Shown here in pieces: positions 34,025-64,000 of a stretch of 64,000 nt of DNA. A program made the translations under genes and the position numbers. The stretch spans positions 62,001-126,000 of the forward strand of contig NZ_RBIL01000001.1 of NCBI RefSeq assembly GCF_003633755.1. Reading direction: 5' to 3'. This DNA comes from Solirubrobacter pauli. GTDB taxonomy: Bacteria; Actinomycetota; Thermoleophilia; Solirubrobacterales; Solirubrobacteraceae. Under the pieces are notes generated by a model. That model was not told the DNA's origin. It searched no databases and was given only the letters and a program-made list of their open reading frames with translations. Position 1 is the first letter of the stretch. Each line of letters begins with the position of its first letter.

Positions 34025-34198
34025 ATGGGTCAGTCCCAACAGCAGCACCGCACCCCCTCCACGCGCCGCGAGTCCGTCTCCACGGCCGTCGGCATCGCCG
34101 CCGAGCGCGCGGCCCTCGCCGCCCGCGAGCGCGACCTCGTGCAGGCCCGCGCCGCCGCGCAGCGCCTGGCGAGCACGTCATCGGCGAGCGCCCGATGA
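34025..34198 (+). CDS. Small Gln/Ala/Arg-rich protein (57 aa)
   Basis: The ATG has a strong ribosome-binding site, GGAGG at 34011-34015, 9 nt upstream. The product starts MGQSQQQHRTPSTRRESVST and continues as a charged helix (AAERAALAARERDLVQARAA). Codon third positions are almost all G/C. The stop overlaps the next start (ATGA). No family recognised; an amphipathic helix of this type could be a DNA- or protein-binding factor. The frame is too short to be trusted on length alone, but the ribosome-binding site and the coupling support it. Confidence 0.55.
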   Translation: MGQSQQQHRTPSTRRESVSTAVGIAAERAALAARERDLVQARAAAQRLASTSSASAR

Positions 34199-34368
34199 CC
34201 CCGCCCCCGAACCCGGCGCCCCGCCCGCGTTCCGCCTCGCCGGCGGAGCGCAGCGAGGAGTTCGCCGCGCACCAGCAGAAGCTCAAGGACGAAGCGGCCG
34301 CGCGCCGCAAAGCGGCCGAGAGCGACCCGGCCGCGAAGCCCAAGCCGCGCCCGACGTCCAGCGGCTGA
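34195..34368 (+). CDS. Small Pro/Lys/Ala-rich protein (57 aa)
   Basis: Starts at the ATGA overlap with the previous small gene and has the same length, 57 residues. It has a Pro-rich disordered beginning (MTPPPNPAPRPRSASPAERS), a charged helix (EEFAAHQQKLKDEAAARRKA) and a basic Pro tail (AKPKPRPTSSG). Probably mostly disordered. No family recognised. Copy A of the dispersed repeat begins 8 nt after its stop. Confidence 0.5.
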   Translation: MTPPPNPAPRPRSASPAERSEEFAAHQQKLKDEAAARRKAAESDPAAKPKPRPTSSG

Positions 34369-34376
34369 CACCCCGG

Positions 34377-34492
34377 TCGTCCAGCCAGCGCACCCCTCCT
34401 CCCCAAGGAACGCGCTCGCTCACAAGACGACGCCGGCCTGAAGACGCGCAACGACCTCATCGGCCCCGCCTGACCAGCGGGGCCGAGTTCGT
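34377..34492. repeat. Dispersed repeat, copy A (diverged, partial)
   Basis: About 116 bp that align with the 3' half of the 248-bp repeats at 60039 and 61682. Shared blocks are TCGTCCAGC, CCCCTCCTCCCCA, GGAACGC, CTCGCTC, CAAGACGACGCCGGCCTGAA and ATCGGCCCCGCCTGACCAGC through GAGTTCGT (A has TCATCGG). It has several substitutions and small indels. It lies between the small-protein pair and the convergent epimerase gene. Confidence 0.85.
34460..34486. terminator. Conserved repeat hairpin, copy A
   Basis: TCGGCCCCGC and GCGGGGCCGA form a perfect 10-bp stem around CTGACCA. On the minus strand it starts 18 nt past the epimerase stop codon, and on the plus strand it follows the small genes. It could therefore terminate from both sides. 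Confidence 0.6.
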
Positions 34493-34504
34493 CAAGGGCC
34501 ACGC

Positions 34505-59996: not shown

Positions 59997-60038
59997 CGAG
60001 GCGAGCGCGGGCGGGGGTGTGGCTGGCACCACCTGGCG

Positions 60039-60286
60039 GGCACGACCAGCCACACCTGCAGACGCCAGCCTGCTCCCCGGAACCGACCCGTCCCCGCTGG
60101 CAGAGTTCTCAGTGTCAACAGACACTCTCCAGACCGAAGACCCAGGACCCTCCTCTCTCTCCTCCTCCAGTCGTCCAGCGCGCGCCCCTCTCCTCCCCAG
60201 GAACGCACTCGCTCTCAAGACGACGCCGGCCTGAAGACGCGAAACGAAATCATCGGCCCCGCCTGACCAGCGGGGCCGAGTTCGTT
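60039..60286. repeat. Dispersed 248-bp repeat, copy B
   Basis: Identical to 61682-61929 except T/C at 60109/61752, with no gaps. Inside are a hairpin AGTGTC-AACA-GACACT (60111-60126) extended by CTGG (60097-60100)/CCAG (60129-60132), a pyrimidine-rich run (CCCTCCTCTCTCTCCTCCTC, 60148-60167), and the terminal GC hairpin. No convincing gene is inside. It fills most of the 337-bp gap between the L,D-transpeptidase and the frameshifted gene. Confidence 0.95.
60253..60279. terminator. Conserved repeat hairpin, copy B
   Basis: TCGGCCCCGC/GCGGGGCCGA, 10-bp perfect stem, CTGACCA loop. On the minus strand it starts 10 nt past the stop of the broken gene at 60290 and is followed by a T-rich TGATTTCGTTT, so it would work as that gene's terminator. 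Confidence 0.6.
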
Positions 60287-60289
60287 CCG

Positions 60290-60615
60290 CTAGCAGAACC
60301 CGGCCTGCCGCAGCCCGTCGAGGACCAGCCCGGCGAACCAGTCGTGCAGCTCGGCTCGGGGAACGACCTCGCGCGACCAGTTGACGATCGCTGCGCCGTG
60401 GTTGGCCCCACGCGCACCCGCGCCGAGCCCGTGCTCGCCCGGGACCACGTACAGCCAGACGGCGAAGTGCCCGCGCCGGTGGTCGAAGCTGACGAACCGC
60501 TCGAGGCGCATCCGAGCAGCGCCGTCGACGCGTGGTCGCAGCCCCGCCGGCATCCCCCGCACACCCGCAGCGCGGTGCGGTCGGCGCACGCCTCCGCCCA
60601 CGCGTCGAAGGTCAC
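60290..60615 (-). pseudogene. Frameshifted gene after the SpoIIAA-like gene
   Basis: The GTG at 60615 overlaps the previous stop (GTGA), giving VTFDAWAEACADRTALRVCG, CRRGCDHASTALLG. Around 60500-60515 G/C third-position bias switches to another frame, which continues LERFVSFDHRRGHFAVWLYV to GLVLDGLRQAGFC. The two halves together make ~108 residues and do not join in one frame (326 nt). The family is not recognised. Either a one-base indel has broken the gene, or two short frames overlap; the smooth change in codon bias favours the former. The second half alone could start at an ATG at 60511 (73 residues). Confidence 0.5.
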
Positions 60616-61007
60616 AGGGCGTCGCGCTGCCCGGTCTGACGCGCCAGCCACGCCTCGGCCTCAGCGCGGTCCGTGGTCGAGAAGACGCGGATCGTGCCGG
60701 GGACGAGCCAGCCGAACAGCGGGATCGAGCGGCGCAGCCAGTCGATGTCGGTGACGACCGCGAAGAAGGACTCGACCGACCGCTGCTTGGAGCCGAGCCG
60801 CGCGGCCGACTTGAGCTCGTTCAGCAGCGGCCCGGGCTCGACGCCCTCGAAGTCCTGGATGATGGCGAGGGCGCGGATCGGCCCGCCCCGCGCGATCGTC
60901 TCCGCGATCGGCGGCAGCAGCGTCTCGCGGAAGTCCGCGTGGGTCAGCCGGCCCGAGATGGCGAACGCCAGCGTGCCGGGGGCCTGCGCCTCGATCACCG
61001 TGACCAT
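60612..61007 (-). CDS. SpoIIAA-like (STAS-type) protein
   Basis: 131 residues. The pattern VTVIEAQAPGTLAFAISGRL, HADFRETLLPPIAETIARGG, IRALAIIQDFEGVEPGPLLN and a late FGWLVPGTIRVFSTTDRAEA, then EAWL, matches the SpoIIAA-like/DUF3478 family. This has a STAS-like fold and is thought to bind lipids at membranes. Cytoplasmic. The ATG at 61007 is preferred to one 11 codons earlier. Its stop overlaps the GTG of the following broken gene, showing an operon. Confidence 0.8.
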   Translation of the reverse strand: MVTVIEAQAPGTLAFAISGRLTHADFRETLLPPIAETIARGGPIRALAIIQDFEGVEPGPLLNELKSAARLGSKQRSVESFFAVVTDIDWLRRSIPLFGWLVPGTIRVFSTTDRAEAEAWLARQTGQRDAL

Positions 61008-61063
61008 GCGAAGACGGTAGCCACGGTCTCGGCGATCCACGATCCGGGTACCAACAGCGATCG

Positions 61064-61615
61064 ATGCTGCTTGCGCTCTCGCTCGCCGCCGCCACGGCGC
61101 TCACCCCCGCCTCGTCGACGGAGCGCTTCGTCATCAAGAGCACGAACATGTCCCCACGGCTGGAGGTCAACCAGCGGGTGGAGTTCGACCTGGCCGCATA
61201 CGCGAACCAGGAGCCGAAGGTCGGGGACATCGTCCTGCTCCATCCCCCGGTCGGTGCCGCCGAGGAGCGGTGCGGGAACCGGCCCAAGCCGCGTGCCGCG
61301 TGCACGAAGCCGTACGGCGGCCCGGACACGTCGGTGCGGTTCGTGGATCGCGTCGTCGCCGTCGGCGGGGATCGGATCAGCTTCCGGCGCGGGCGCGTCG
61401 TGCGCAACGGCACGCTCGAGACCCGCAAGCTCGTCCGTAGCTGCAGCGACGTCGACGCGTGCTCGTTCCCGCGCACGATCACGGTGCCCGAGGGCCACGT
61501 CTACGTCGCCGGTGACAACCGCGGCGGCTCCGACGACAGCCGCTTCTGGGGCGCGCTCCCGATCGATCAGGTGCTCGGCCGCTACGTGCGGACCGCAGGC
61601 ACGTGCGGCTGCTGA
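61064..61615 (+). CDS. Signal peptidase I-like protein lacking catalytic residues
   Basis: 183 residues. A short hydrophobic start (MLLALSLAAATALT) is followed by the S26 fold. Box B reads VIKSTNMSPRLEVNQRVEFD, where the Ser of SxSMxP is Asn. Box D reads VRFVDRVVAVGGDRI, where the general-base Lys of the KR pair is Asp. Box E, GDNRGGSDDSRFWG, is perfect. Fold and substrate-binding parts are kept while the Ser-Lys dyad is lost, so it is probably not a protease; it could bind pre-proteins or act as a decoy. It is divergent from the SpoIIAA-like gene, and repeat copy C follows. Confidence 0.8.
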   Translation: MLLALSLAAATALTPASSTERFVIKSTNMSPRLEVNQRVEFDLAAYANQEPKVGDIVLLHPPVGAAEERCGNRPKPRAACTKPYGGPDTSVRFVDRVVAVGGDRISFRRGRVVRNGTLETRKLVRSCSDVDACSFPRTITVPEGHVYVAGDNRGGSDDSRFWGALPIDQVLGRYVRTAGTCGC

Positions 61616-61681
61616 GCGGCGCACCCGCTTTACCTCAGCGCGTCGGCCGGACTCGCAGGGTGCGGTTTGCCTCACCCGGTA
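61616..61681. other. Spacer between the signal-peptidase-like gene and repeat copy C
   Basis: No gene. GCCTCACCCG at 61669-61678 also occurs beside copy B (59985-59994) but 41 bp further from the repeat. The ancestral repeat may therefore have been longer, with an indel at its left end. Confidence 0.4.
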
Positions 61682-61929
61682 GGCACGACCAGCCACACCT
61701 GCAGACGCCAGCCTGCTCCCCGGAACCGACCCGTCCCCGCTGGCAGAGTTCCCAGTGTCAACAGACACTCTCCAGACCGAAGACCCAGGACCCTCCTCTC
61801 TCTCCTCCTCCAGTCGTCCAGCGCGCGCCCCTCTCCTCCCCAGGAACGCACTCGCTCTCAAGACGACGCCGGCCTGAAGACGCGAAACGAAATCATCGGC
61901 CCCGCCTGACCAGCGGGGCCGAGTTCGTT
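61682..61929. repeat. Dispersed 248-bp repeat, copy C
   Basis: 247 of 248 bases match copy B at a constant offset of 1643 bp, with no indel. It fills the gap between two convergent genes. It has the same internal hairpin (AGTGTC-AACA-GACACT, 61754-61769), pyrimidine run and terminal hairpin as copy B. The 1.4 kb between copies B and C (broken gene, SpoIIAA-like gene, signal-peptidase-like gene) is thus bracketed by direct repeats. Confidence 0.95.
61896..61922. terminator. Conserved repeat hairpin, copy C
   Basis: The same 10-bp stem and 7-nt loop as copies A and B. On the minus strand it starts 15 nt past the stop of the membrane protein gene, with the same T-rich tail as copy B. Confidence 0.6.
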
Positions 61930-61937
61930 AAAGGCGT

Positions 61938-62637: not shown

Positions 62638-64000
62638 TCATGGGTTCGTCGTCGACAGCGTGAAGGTCACCGTCTTCGCGTAGGTGCCGGTGCGCAGCGG
62701 CTCCTTCTCCCCGATCGCCTGCTTGAGGCCGAGCGTGACCTCGTCGCGGGAGACGGGCGCCGCGTACGTGCGCAGCGTCGTCGGCGTGGACGTGACGGGC
62801 GCGTACGTGCCGTCGCCCGCGCGGACCTGCAGCGGCTGGGCGAGCGTGTAGGAGCCGTTGACGAGCCGGCCCGGCGCGGTGGTCGCGGTGTCGGCCACGG
62901 ACAGCGCCGCGTCACCCGCGGTGGAGGTGACGGTCGCGGTCGTGGTGGCGAGGTAGTCCTGCGCCACGCCGGCGACGAACGGCGCGAACACGGCCGGCAG
63001 GCCGAGCGTCAGGCCGAGCTGCGGCGGCACGGTGCCGGAGACCACGCCCGGCGTGGTCGCCTCGCGGTACGGCGCGGCGATCCGGCCCGGCGAGCCGGTC
63101 TCGCCCGCCACCGTCCACGCGCCGTTGACACCGGCCACGCTGAGCTTGACGCCGTCGACGTTCTCGAACGTGAACCCGGTCACGGCGGGGCCGAAGCTGA
63201 AGCCGCTCACGCGCGTGCCCGAGGCGTCGAACACGTTGACGGCGTCGCCGTCCGTCGACAGGCCGATGCCCGAGCCGCTGTAGAAGCCGATCTTGATCTC
63301 CGGGCCGAGCTGCCAGGAGGCGCGCAGCGCCGCCGCCGTGGCGGCCGTGCCCTCGACGAACAGGACCGACTCACCCGGCGCGATCGACGTGACGCCGTTC
63401 AGCGCGAGCGCCGAGGCGAACGCGTTGGAGCTGTCGTCGACCTTCCAGCCGCTGACGTCCACGGCCGTCGTACCGCGGTTGGTCACCTCGAACCAGTCGG
63501 CGCGGTACGGGCTGTTGCCCGAGCTCCACGGCGACGCCTCGGTCACCGCGATCGTGGACACGCTCACCGTCAGCGTCGCGCTCGTCGCGTCCGGCGTCGC
63601 GCCCACGGAGACGTCGTCGACGGTCACCGCCACGCTGATGCTCACGCGGTCCAGCGGGGCGCCGGCCTTCAGGTACAGGGCGGTGCCGTCGAGCTCGAAG
63701 AACGCCGCGTCGGCGCCGGCCACCGCCAGCGTGTTGGTGCCCTGGCCGTCGTCGGAGACGGACACGTCGGCGATCTTCACGCGCGTCGCGGTGCTCGACA
63801 CCGACGTCACGGCGTTGGTCAGCGCCACGCCGGTCGGCGCGGCGTTCGGGCCGCTCGCGGGCGCGTACACCCACAGCTGCGGATGGTCGACGTCGCCGCC
63901 GCCGTTCTCGTTGGTGACGTAGATGCGGCCGGCGCGGTCCATGGTCACGCCCTCGTGCCCCTCGTCAGCGCTGCCGACCGTCAACGAGCTCGTGACCGTG
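62638..64000 (-). CDS. Large secreted protein with lamin-tail domain, partial (5' end outside window)
   Basis: The frame is open to the window edge; ~454 residues are visible. The start of the visible part (EGVTMDRAGRIYVTNENGGG) resembles an SdiA-regulated/esterase-like propeller end. A cadherin-like segment follows (VSVSDDGQGTNTLAVAGADA), then a lamin-tail domain (SPYRADWFEVTNRGTTAVDV, SGWKVDDSSN, SIAPGESVLFVEG). The last ~125 residues match the C-terminal domain of the amidase at 7344, ending in the same LSTTNP. It is probably secreted and surface-held. TTG at 63984 could be mistaken for a start, but the frame continues beyond it. Confidence 0.75.
   Translation of the reverse strand, partial: TVTSSLTVGSADEGHEGVTMDRAGRIYVTNENGGGDVDHPQLWVYAPASGPNAAPTGVALTNAVTSVSSTATRVKIADVSVSDDGQGTNTLAVAGADAAFFELDGTALYLKAGAPLDRVSISVAVTVDDVSVGATPDATSATLTVSVSTIAVTEASPWSSGNSPYRADWFEVTNRGTTAVDVSGWKVDDSSNAFASALALNGVTSIAPGESVLFVEGTAATAAALRASWQLGPEIKIGFYSGSGIGLSTDGDAVNVFDASGTRVSGFSFGPAVTGFTFENVDGVKLSVAGVNGAWTVAGETGSPGRIAAPYREATTPGVVSGTVPPQLGLTLGLPAVFAPFVAGVAQDYLATTTATVTSTAGDAALSVADTATTAPGRLVNGSYTLAQPLQVRAGDGTYAPVTSTPTTLRTYAAPVSRDEVTLGLKQAIGEKEPLRTGTYAKTVTFTLSTTNP

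What the first reader, a model, noticed from the sequence alone, without database searches (positions are those of the whole stretch)
60039..61929. Two near-identical 248-bp intergenic repeats bracket three genes
60039-60286 and 61682-61929 match at 247 of 248 positions with no gaps, although they contain no gene. Intergenic DNA this conserved means a recent duplication or active conversion, or a constrained element such as a non-coding RNA or a mobile repeat. The bracketed 1.4 kb holds a broken gene, a SpoIIAA-like gene and a signal-peptidase-like gene without its active site, so this segment could be an inserted or decaying cassette.
Basis: seen in the sequence. Interest (0 to 1): 0.75.

Follow-up and report, generated by a model that had tools for sequence, protein, structure and literature searches.

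The report
Solirubrobacter multi-copy structured RNA gene
The two near-identical 248-base repeats are two copies of a small RNA gene family that appears to exist only in the soil-bacterium genus Solirubrobacter, and their near-identity most likely comes from recent copying between the two genes rather than from a mobile cassette.

Summary
In detail: 60039-60286 and 61682-61929 match at 247 of 248 positions without gaps. The cassette reading does not hold. The repeat is the body of a ~275-nt non-coding element that starts at a GGTGYGG...CCRCACC dyad and ends in a terminator hairpin. G000 has three full copies and one 3' fragment, all on the same strand within 105 kb. A covariance model finds one or more copies in all 7 genomes of the genus (named relatives: Solirubrobacter deserti, S. 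taibaiensis, S. soli, S. phytolaccae). No convincing copy was found in the rest of the order or in a sample of the class, and there was no match in Rfam, plasmids or phages. Nine copies support a shared fold (10 pairs with compensatory changes; 0 of 500 shuffles as high). Hairpin-GTTTAA is a strand-specific terminator in this genome (8 of 8), so the + strand is very probably transcribed. Outside the 248-bp tract the copies differ (8 of 24 in the 5' arm), and synteny and sequence disagree, which points to gene conversion. I infer a small RNA with an invariant CU-rich loop that could pair with Shine-Dalgarno sequences. Target and expression are untested. The 5' ~105 nt recurs in front of tiny unknown ORFs.

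The parts
60015..60292 (+). copy 1 of the structured RNA element (full length)
   Evidence: covariance-model hit G000:C1:122011-122290, 281 bits; alignment A5
61658..61935 (+). copy 2 of the structured RNA element (full length); by synteny the ortholog of the S. deserti and S. taibaiensis copies beside the LTD-domain gene
   Evidence: covariance-model hit G000:C1:123654-123933, 290 bits; gene order
34373..34492 (+). 3' fragment of a further copy, after the LarA-like gene and a small gene
   Evidence: blastn 91% over query 153-271; model hit 67 bits; the 5' part is replaced by coding sequence ending in TGA
60039..60286 (+). inferred gene-conversion tract in copy 1 (1 of 248 differences from copy 2)
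   Evidence: 5' arm 8 of 24 differences, Fisher p 9e-9
61682..61929 (+). inferred gene-conversion tract in copy 2
60016..60056 (+). 5' dyad/stem GGTGTGGCTGG...CCAGCCACACC of copy 1
   Evidence: consensus fold helix 1, 95% of cells paired; also compatible with a DNA half-site GGTGYGG
60148..60168 (+). pyrimidine loop CCCTCCTCTCTCTCCTCCTCC, core invariant in 9 copies, mostly unpaired in the consensus fold (a weak 3-bp helix touches its first bases)
60170..60224 (+). hairpin closed by GTCGTC (60170-60175) and GACGAC (60219-60224)
   Evidence: helix 6 of the consensus fold
60253..60279 (+). terminator hairpin TCGGCCCCGCCTGACCAGCGGGGCCGA of copy 1
   Evidence: invariant GGCCCCGCCTGACCAGCGGGGCC core in most copies, outer pairs covary; terminator class tested
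61896..61922 (+). terminator hairpin of copy 2, tail GTTCGTTAAAG
60290..60601 (-). bracketed small reading frame, apparently broken; no Pfam match
60612..61007 (-). bracketed SpoIIAA-like gene (PF11964)
   Evidence: E 2.2e-20
61064..61615 (+). bracketed signal-peptidase S26 family gene (PF10502), catalytic Ser apparently replaced
   Evidence: E 3.4e-27

Best explanation
The repeats are two paralogous copies of a genus-specific gene for a structured non-coding RNA of about 275 nt, read on the + strand and ending at a GC-rich intrinsic terminator with a GTTTAA-type tail. The family has one to three full copies per Solirubrobacter genome. Copies 1 and 2 are old paralogs whose bodies were recently made identical by gene conversion over about 248 bp, most simply with copy 1 as donor and copy 2 as recipient. 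The most likely function is that of a trans-acting small RNA: the conserved, mostly single-stranded CCUCCUCUCUCUCCUCCUCC loop, held between stems, would pair with Shine-Dalgarno sequences of target mRNAs and block translation. Shown computationally: homology, genus-wide presence, covarying structure, terminator orientation, conversion signature. Inferred: transcription as an independent RNA, the promoter lying within the 5' domain, the antisense mechanism and the targets.
For: Copies in own genome and relatives; model hits in all 7 genus genomes. Covariation: 94.5% of cells paired, 10 pairs changed on both sides, 0 of 500 shuffles as high on five measures, slid controls far lower; 0 of 500 on four of five measures without the 5' stem and terminator. 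In the distant G002 copy the terminator stem carries a G-C to C-G double change. Strand: 8 of 8 hairpin-GTTTAA motifs in the genome follow a same-strand gene, seven of them 14-30 nt after its end, against 1 control match. Conversion: 1 of 248 against 8 of 24 differences, and copy 2 groups with G000 paralogs although its synteny is that of the G001 and G004 copies.
Against: No expression data. The G.U versus A.C test does not settle the strand, and the minus strand folds with a better z-score. No sigma-70-like promoter was found. Nine to twelve related sequences are few for covariation statistics. Shine-Dalgarno pairing rests only on the loop sequence; targets were not searched.
Confidence: 0.6

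Rival explanations
1. The element is a cis-acting regulatory region: an operator/promoter plus 5' leader (attenuator) whose original tiny ORF was lost, so only leader and terminator remain.
For: Its 5' ~105 nt are homologous to the regions directly upstream of tiny ORFs (MNPSL... and MT[LI]...PVVRE...W) in the same genomes, with the ATG where the element has AAC. The dyad halves fit GGTGYGG with C.A mismatches and variable spacing, as a DNA operator would. Conservation starts abruptly at the dyad with coding sequence often just upstream.
Against: The ~170 nt downstream of the 5' domain are conserved and covary and contain no conserved ORF; the full element recurs at unrelated loci, often with no co-directional gene behind it.
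Confidence: 0.25
2. A mobile or integration-associated repeat (MITE-like element or att site) that brackets inserted genes.
For: Direct orientation of all copies in G000; different genes sit within 4-13 bp of the 3' hairpin at several copies; a 3' fragment lies at 34373-34492 beside the ancestral neighbour genes; the DNA between fragment and copy 2 is partly located elsewhere in S. deserti.
Against: Few copies, no terminal inverted repeats or target duplications noticed, no recombinase seen next to copies, no plasmid or phage match; presence in all genus genomes with covarying structure.
Confidence: 0.08
3. Recent simple duplication of a 248-bp segment, without older paralogy or conversion.
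For: 247 of 248 identity with unrelated flanks.
Against: The 24 bp just upstream are also homologous but differ at 8 of 24 positions, and each 5' arm resembles other copies; copy 2 sits at the syntenic site of the family.
Confidence: 0.07

Closest known systems
Bacterial small RNAs with C/U-rich anti-Shine-Dalgarno loops (e.g. RsaE-type, named from general knowledge)
   Same: Intergenic, ~100-300 nt, stem-loops, exposed CCUCC-type loop, intrinsic terminator
   Different: No sequence or Rfam relationship; targets and expression unknown; genus-restricted
Multi-copy sRNA families with close paralogs (e.g. Qrr or OmrA/OmrB type, from general knowledge)
   Same: Several near-identical paralogs close together
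   Different: Here the identity tract ends sharply inside the homologous unit, suggesting conversion; several genes lie between copies
Riboswitch or attenuator leaders
   Same: 5' structured domain found in front of ORFs in related loci; terminator downstream
   Different: The full element has no co-directional gene close behind it in most copies; no known class matched
MITEs / REP-like repeats
   Same: Short non-coding repeats, intergenic
   Different: No inverted termini seen, low copy number, asymmetric covarying structure

Membership tests
Intergenic structured ncRNA gene family | Conserved sequence without conserved reading frame | tested here: met
   Indels not in threes between copies
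Intergenic structured ncRNA gene family | Covarying secondary structure | tested here: met
   10 pairs with changes on both sides, 0 of 500 shuffles as high
Intergenic structured ncRNA gene family | Own terminator on the transcribed strand | tested here: met
   Hairpin-GTTTAA class strand-specific, 8 of 8; most copies carry this or a near variant of the tail
Intergenic structured ncRNA gene family | Own promoter and detectable transcript | tested here: inconclusive
   No sigma-70-like site; no upstream conservation; no RNA data
trans-acting anti-SD sRNA | Accessible CU-rich seed | tested here: met
   Invariant CUCUCUC core, mostly unpaired in the consensus fold
trans-acting anti-SD sRNA | Regulated targets | not tested
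   Needs experiment
Any Rfam 15 family | Covariance-model match | tested here: not met
   (only weak unrelated hits)
Mobile repeat / MITE | Many dispersed copies with fixed ends | tested here: not met
   3 full copies plus 1 fragment in 7.1 Mb
Mobile repeat / MITE | Terminal inverted repeats and target duplications | tested here: inconclusive
   None seen in the flank alignments; no systematic search was made
tRNA/tmRNA att site | tRNA or tmRNA gene | tested here: not met
   ARAGORN found none in the window
Gene conversion between paralogs | Identity tract ending inside the homologous unit and conflict with synteny | tested here: met

The most novel reading that the evidence does not exclude
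A new genus-specific regulatory module: one 5' domain (GGTGYGG dyad plus GACGCC[AT]GCC...) controls both a multi-copy small RNA and two families of tiny proteins (MNPSL...RR.xR and MT[LI]...PVVRE...W), so the RNA genes and the peptides form one unrecognised regulon.
Probability: 0.25. Interest if true: 0.6.

Novelty: new member of a known kind. Interest (0 to 1): 0.45.

Why it matters
No structured RNA or riboswitch of Solirubrobacter was found in the literature searches (no paper was read in full) and none of the copies matches Rfam. If right, it gives the genus a conserved candidate regulator with clear tests, a terminator signature, and an example of concerted evolution of bacterial small RNA genes. 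The shared 5' module links it to tiny proteins that Pfam does not know.

Tried and rejected
Rfam at E up to 1 on 8 kb of the window and on 12 related loci: nothing relevant. Plasmid and phage searches: no match. First alignments A1/A2 mixed strands and were discarded; A4 had cut 5' ends. A first stem placement on A8 was two columns off and showed no pairing; corrected, where the 5' stem alone exceeds the slid controls but only marginally exceeds the shuffles. Wobble-based strand test: ambiguous. Weak hits of the tiny ORF in other families (L173, L174) were chance. Weak R2 hits in other genera are mostly at chance level, except one at E 1.5e-6 before an ABC-transporter gene (G076).

Full report
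Observation. The two stretches 60039-60286 and 61682-61929 differ at one of 248 positions with no gaps. Identity falls to background right after the 3' end and, on the 5' side, drops to 16 of 24 over the 24 bp just upstream before becoming background. The homologous unit is therefore about 275 bp (60015-60292; 61658-61935), and the near-identical tract is most of it.

Distribution. The genome (G000, 7.14 Mb, 4 contigs) holds a third full copy at C1:201464-201735 (89%) and a 3' fragment at C1:96373-96492, which is window 34373-34492. All are on the same strand. Relatives in the genus have 84% to 77% identical copies. A covariance model built from nine copies (R1) finds further, much more diverged full-length copies, so that all 7 genus genomes have at least one; no convincing hit appears in 225 other genomes of the order or in a sample of about 300 genomes of the class. 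A pattern scan of named genomes shows the relatives are Solirubrobacter deserti, S. taibaiensis, S. soli, S. phytolaccae and Solirubrobacter sp. CPCC 204708. Plasmids and phages have no match, Rfam none.

Structure. The consensus fold on nine copies has nine helices and 57 pairs. 94.5% of cells are paired, 10 pairs have changes on both sides, and none of 500 shuffles reaches any of the five measures; sliding the partners destroys the signal. Removing the 5' stem and the terminator leaves a significant body on four of five measures. A separate prediction on twelve copies, including the diverged G002, G005 and G004c copies, keeps the 5' stem, the GTCGTC/GACGAC stem and the terminator. The sequences are related, so these numbers are supportive and not probabilities. 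The loop CCUCCUCUCUCUCCUCCUCC has an invariant core and is mostly unpaired.

Strand. Folding energy and wobble counts do not decide it, and the 3' hairpin could work on both strands. Two observations favour the + strand. The 5' domain precedes ORFs on this strand in related loci. And a search for GC hairpins followed by GTTTAA in the own genome gave 8 matches against 1 control, all 8 downstream of a gene on the same strand, seven of them 14-30 nt after its end. Most copies of the element end in the same kind of tail (GTTCGTTTAAG, CGTTAAAG, CGTTAAGG; copy 1 has CGTTCCGC).

Origin of the near-identity. Copy 2 sits at the ancestral place: in S. deserti and S. taibaiensis the gene order is LarA-like gene, element, then the convergent LTD-domain gene, with one or two small genes between in S. 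taibaiensis (domains), and copy 2 of G000 is on that side of the LTD gene with one DUF6518 gene between. Yet its body is nearly identical to copy 1 and it groups with the other G000 copies. The 5' arms of copies 1 and 2 differ at 8 of 24 positions against 1 of 248 in the body (Fisher p 9e-9); the arm of copy 1 is closer to copy 3 (4 of 24) than the arm of copy 2 is (9 of 24). Gene conversion over the 248-bp tract explains this; the direction, copy 1 to copy 2, is inferred. A plain duplication or an assembly duplicate does not explain the diverged arms.

Bracketed genes. They are SpoIIAA-like, S26-like and one apparently broken frame. Relatives of the first two lie 15 kb apart on one contig in Solirubrobacter sp. 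CPCC 204708 (G006:C399), away from any element copy. They look like ordinary genes caught between two RNA genes by rearrangement, not like a cassette carried by the repeat. The DNA between the 34373 fragment and copy 2 is partly located elsewhere in S. deserti (6.7 kb at 83% on C129), so a rearrangement had its breakpoints near element copies; homologous recombination between copies is a plausible cause (inference).

The shared 5' domain. A model of the first ~105 nt (R2) also finds loci in the same genomes where the domain is followed directly by tiny ORFs: MNPSLIxL...RRRxxR and then MTLI...RRPxSHAFAVPVVREVPRPAA...NCW, plus a second class upstream of MTLLLPRTSRSxTPHTYVVPVVRELPSSS...SVW. Pfam knows neither. 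Whether this domain acts as RNA or as a DNA operator is open: extended complementary arms favour pairing, while C.A mismatches, changing spacing and additional half-sites favour an operator.

Mechanism. I commit to a small RNA acting in trans by its CU-rich loop on Shine-Dalgarno sequences. Shown computationally: homology, structure, terminator, conversion signature. Inferred: transcription, promoter position, seed function. About 0.6 for the RNA-gene-plus-conversion part taken together, and about 0.3 for the anti-SD mode.

Noticed in passing
L159, L147, L153, L158, L150, L154, L149 (at ~1501-1605): A leader homologous to the element's 5' domain directly precedes tiny ORFs MNPSL...RR.xR (not found in G005) and MT[LI]...PVVRE...W; the tiny proteins have no Pfam match and look genus-specific.
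   Followed up: partly
L166, L165, L155, L162 (at ~1501-1750): A second class: GGTGCGG/CCGCACC half-sites, ACGCCAG, an invariant ACGTATCAAGCAGCA block and a ~40-aa ORF ending SVW/SAW/SLW; a gene starting VDFEIMGVVNVTPDSFSDG (dihydropteroate-synthase-like, read by eye) follows in three of the four.
   Followed up: partly
G000 C1 and C2 (L189-L196): A GC hairpin followed by a short spacer and GTTTAA marks gene ends strand-specifically (8 of 8), an intrinsic terminator form without a long U-run.
   Followed up: yes
62640-63050: The C-terminal ~130 aa of the LTD-domain gene (ending TVTFTLSTTNP) recurs at many loci across every genome of the genus at ~70% DNA identity.
   Followed up: no
L170 / L109: In another family of the order (G076) a 5'-domain-like site (E 1.5e-6) lies upstream of an ABC-transporter ATPase gene.
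   Followed up: partly
L157: In S. soli a weak 5'-domain-like site (E 0.002) lies upstream of a gene that looks like an MmpL/RND-type transporter.
   Followed up: no
34180-34500: A short gene ending PRPTSSG* abuts the 3' fragment of the element; the 5' part of the element is missing there, marking a rearrangement breakpoint.
   Followed up: partly
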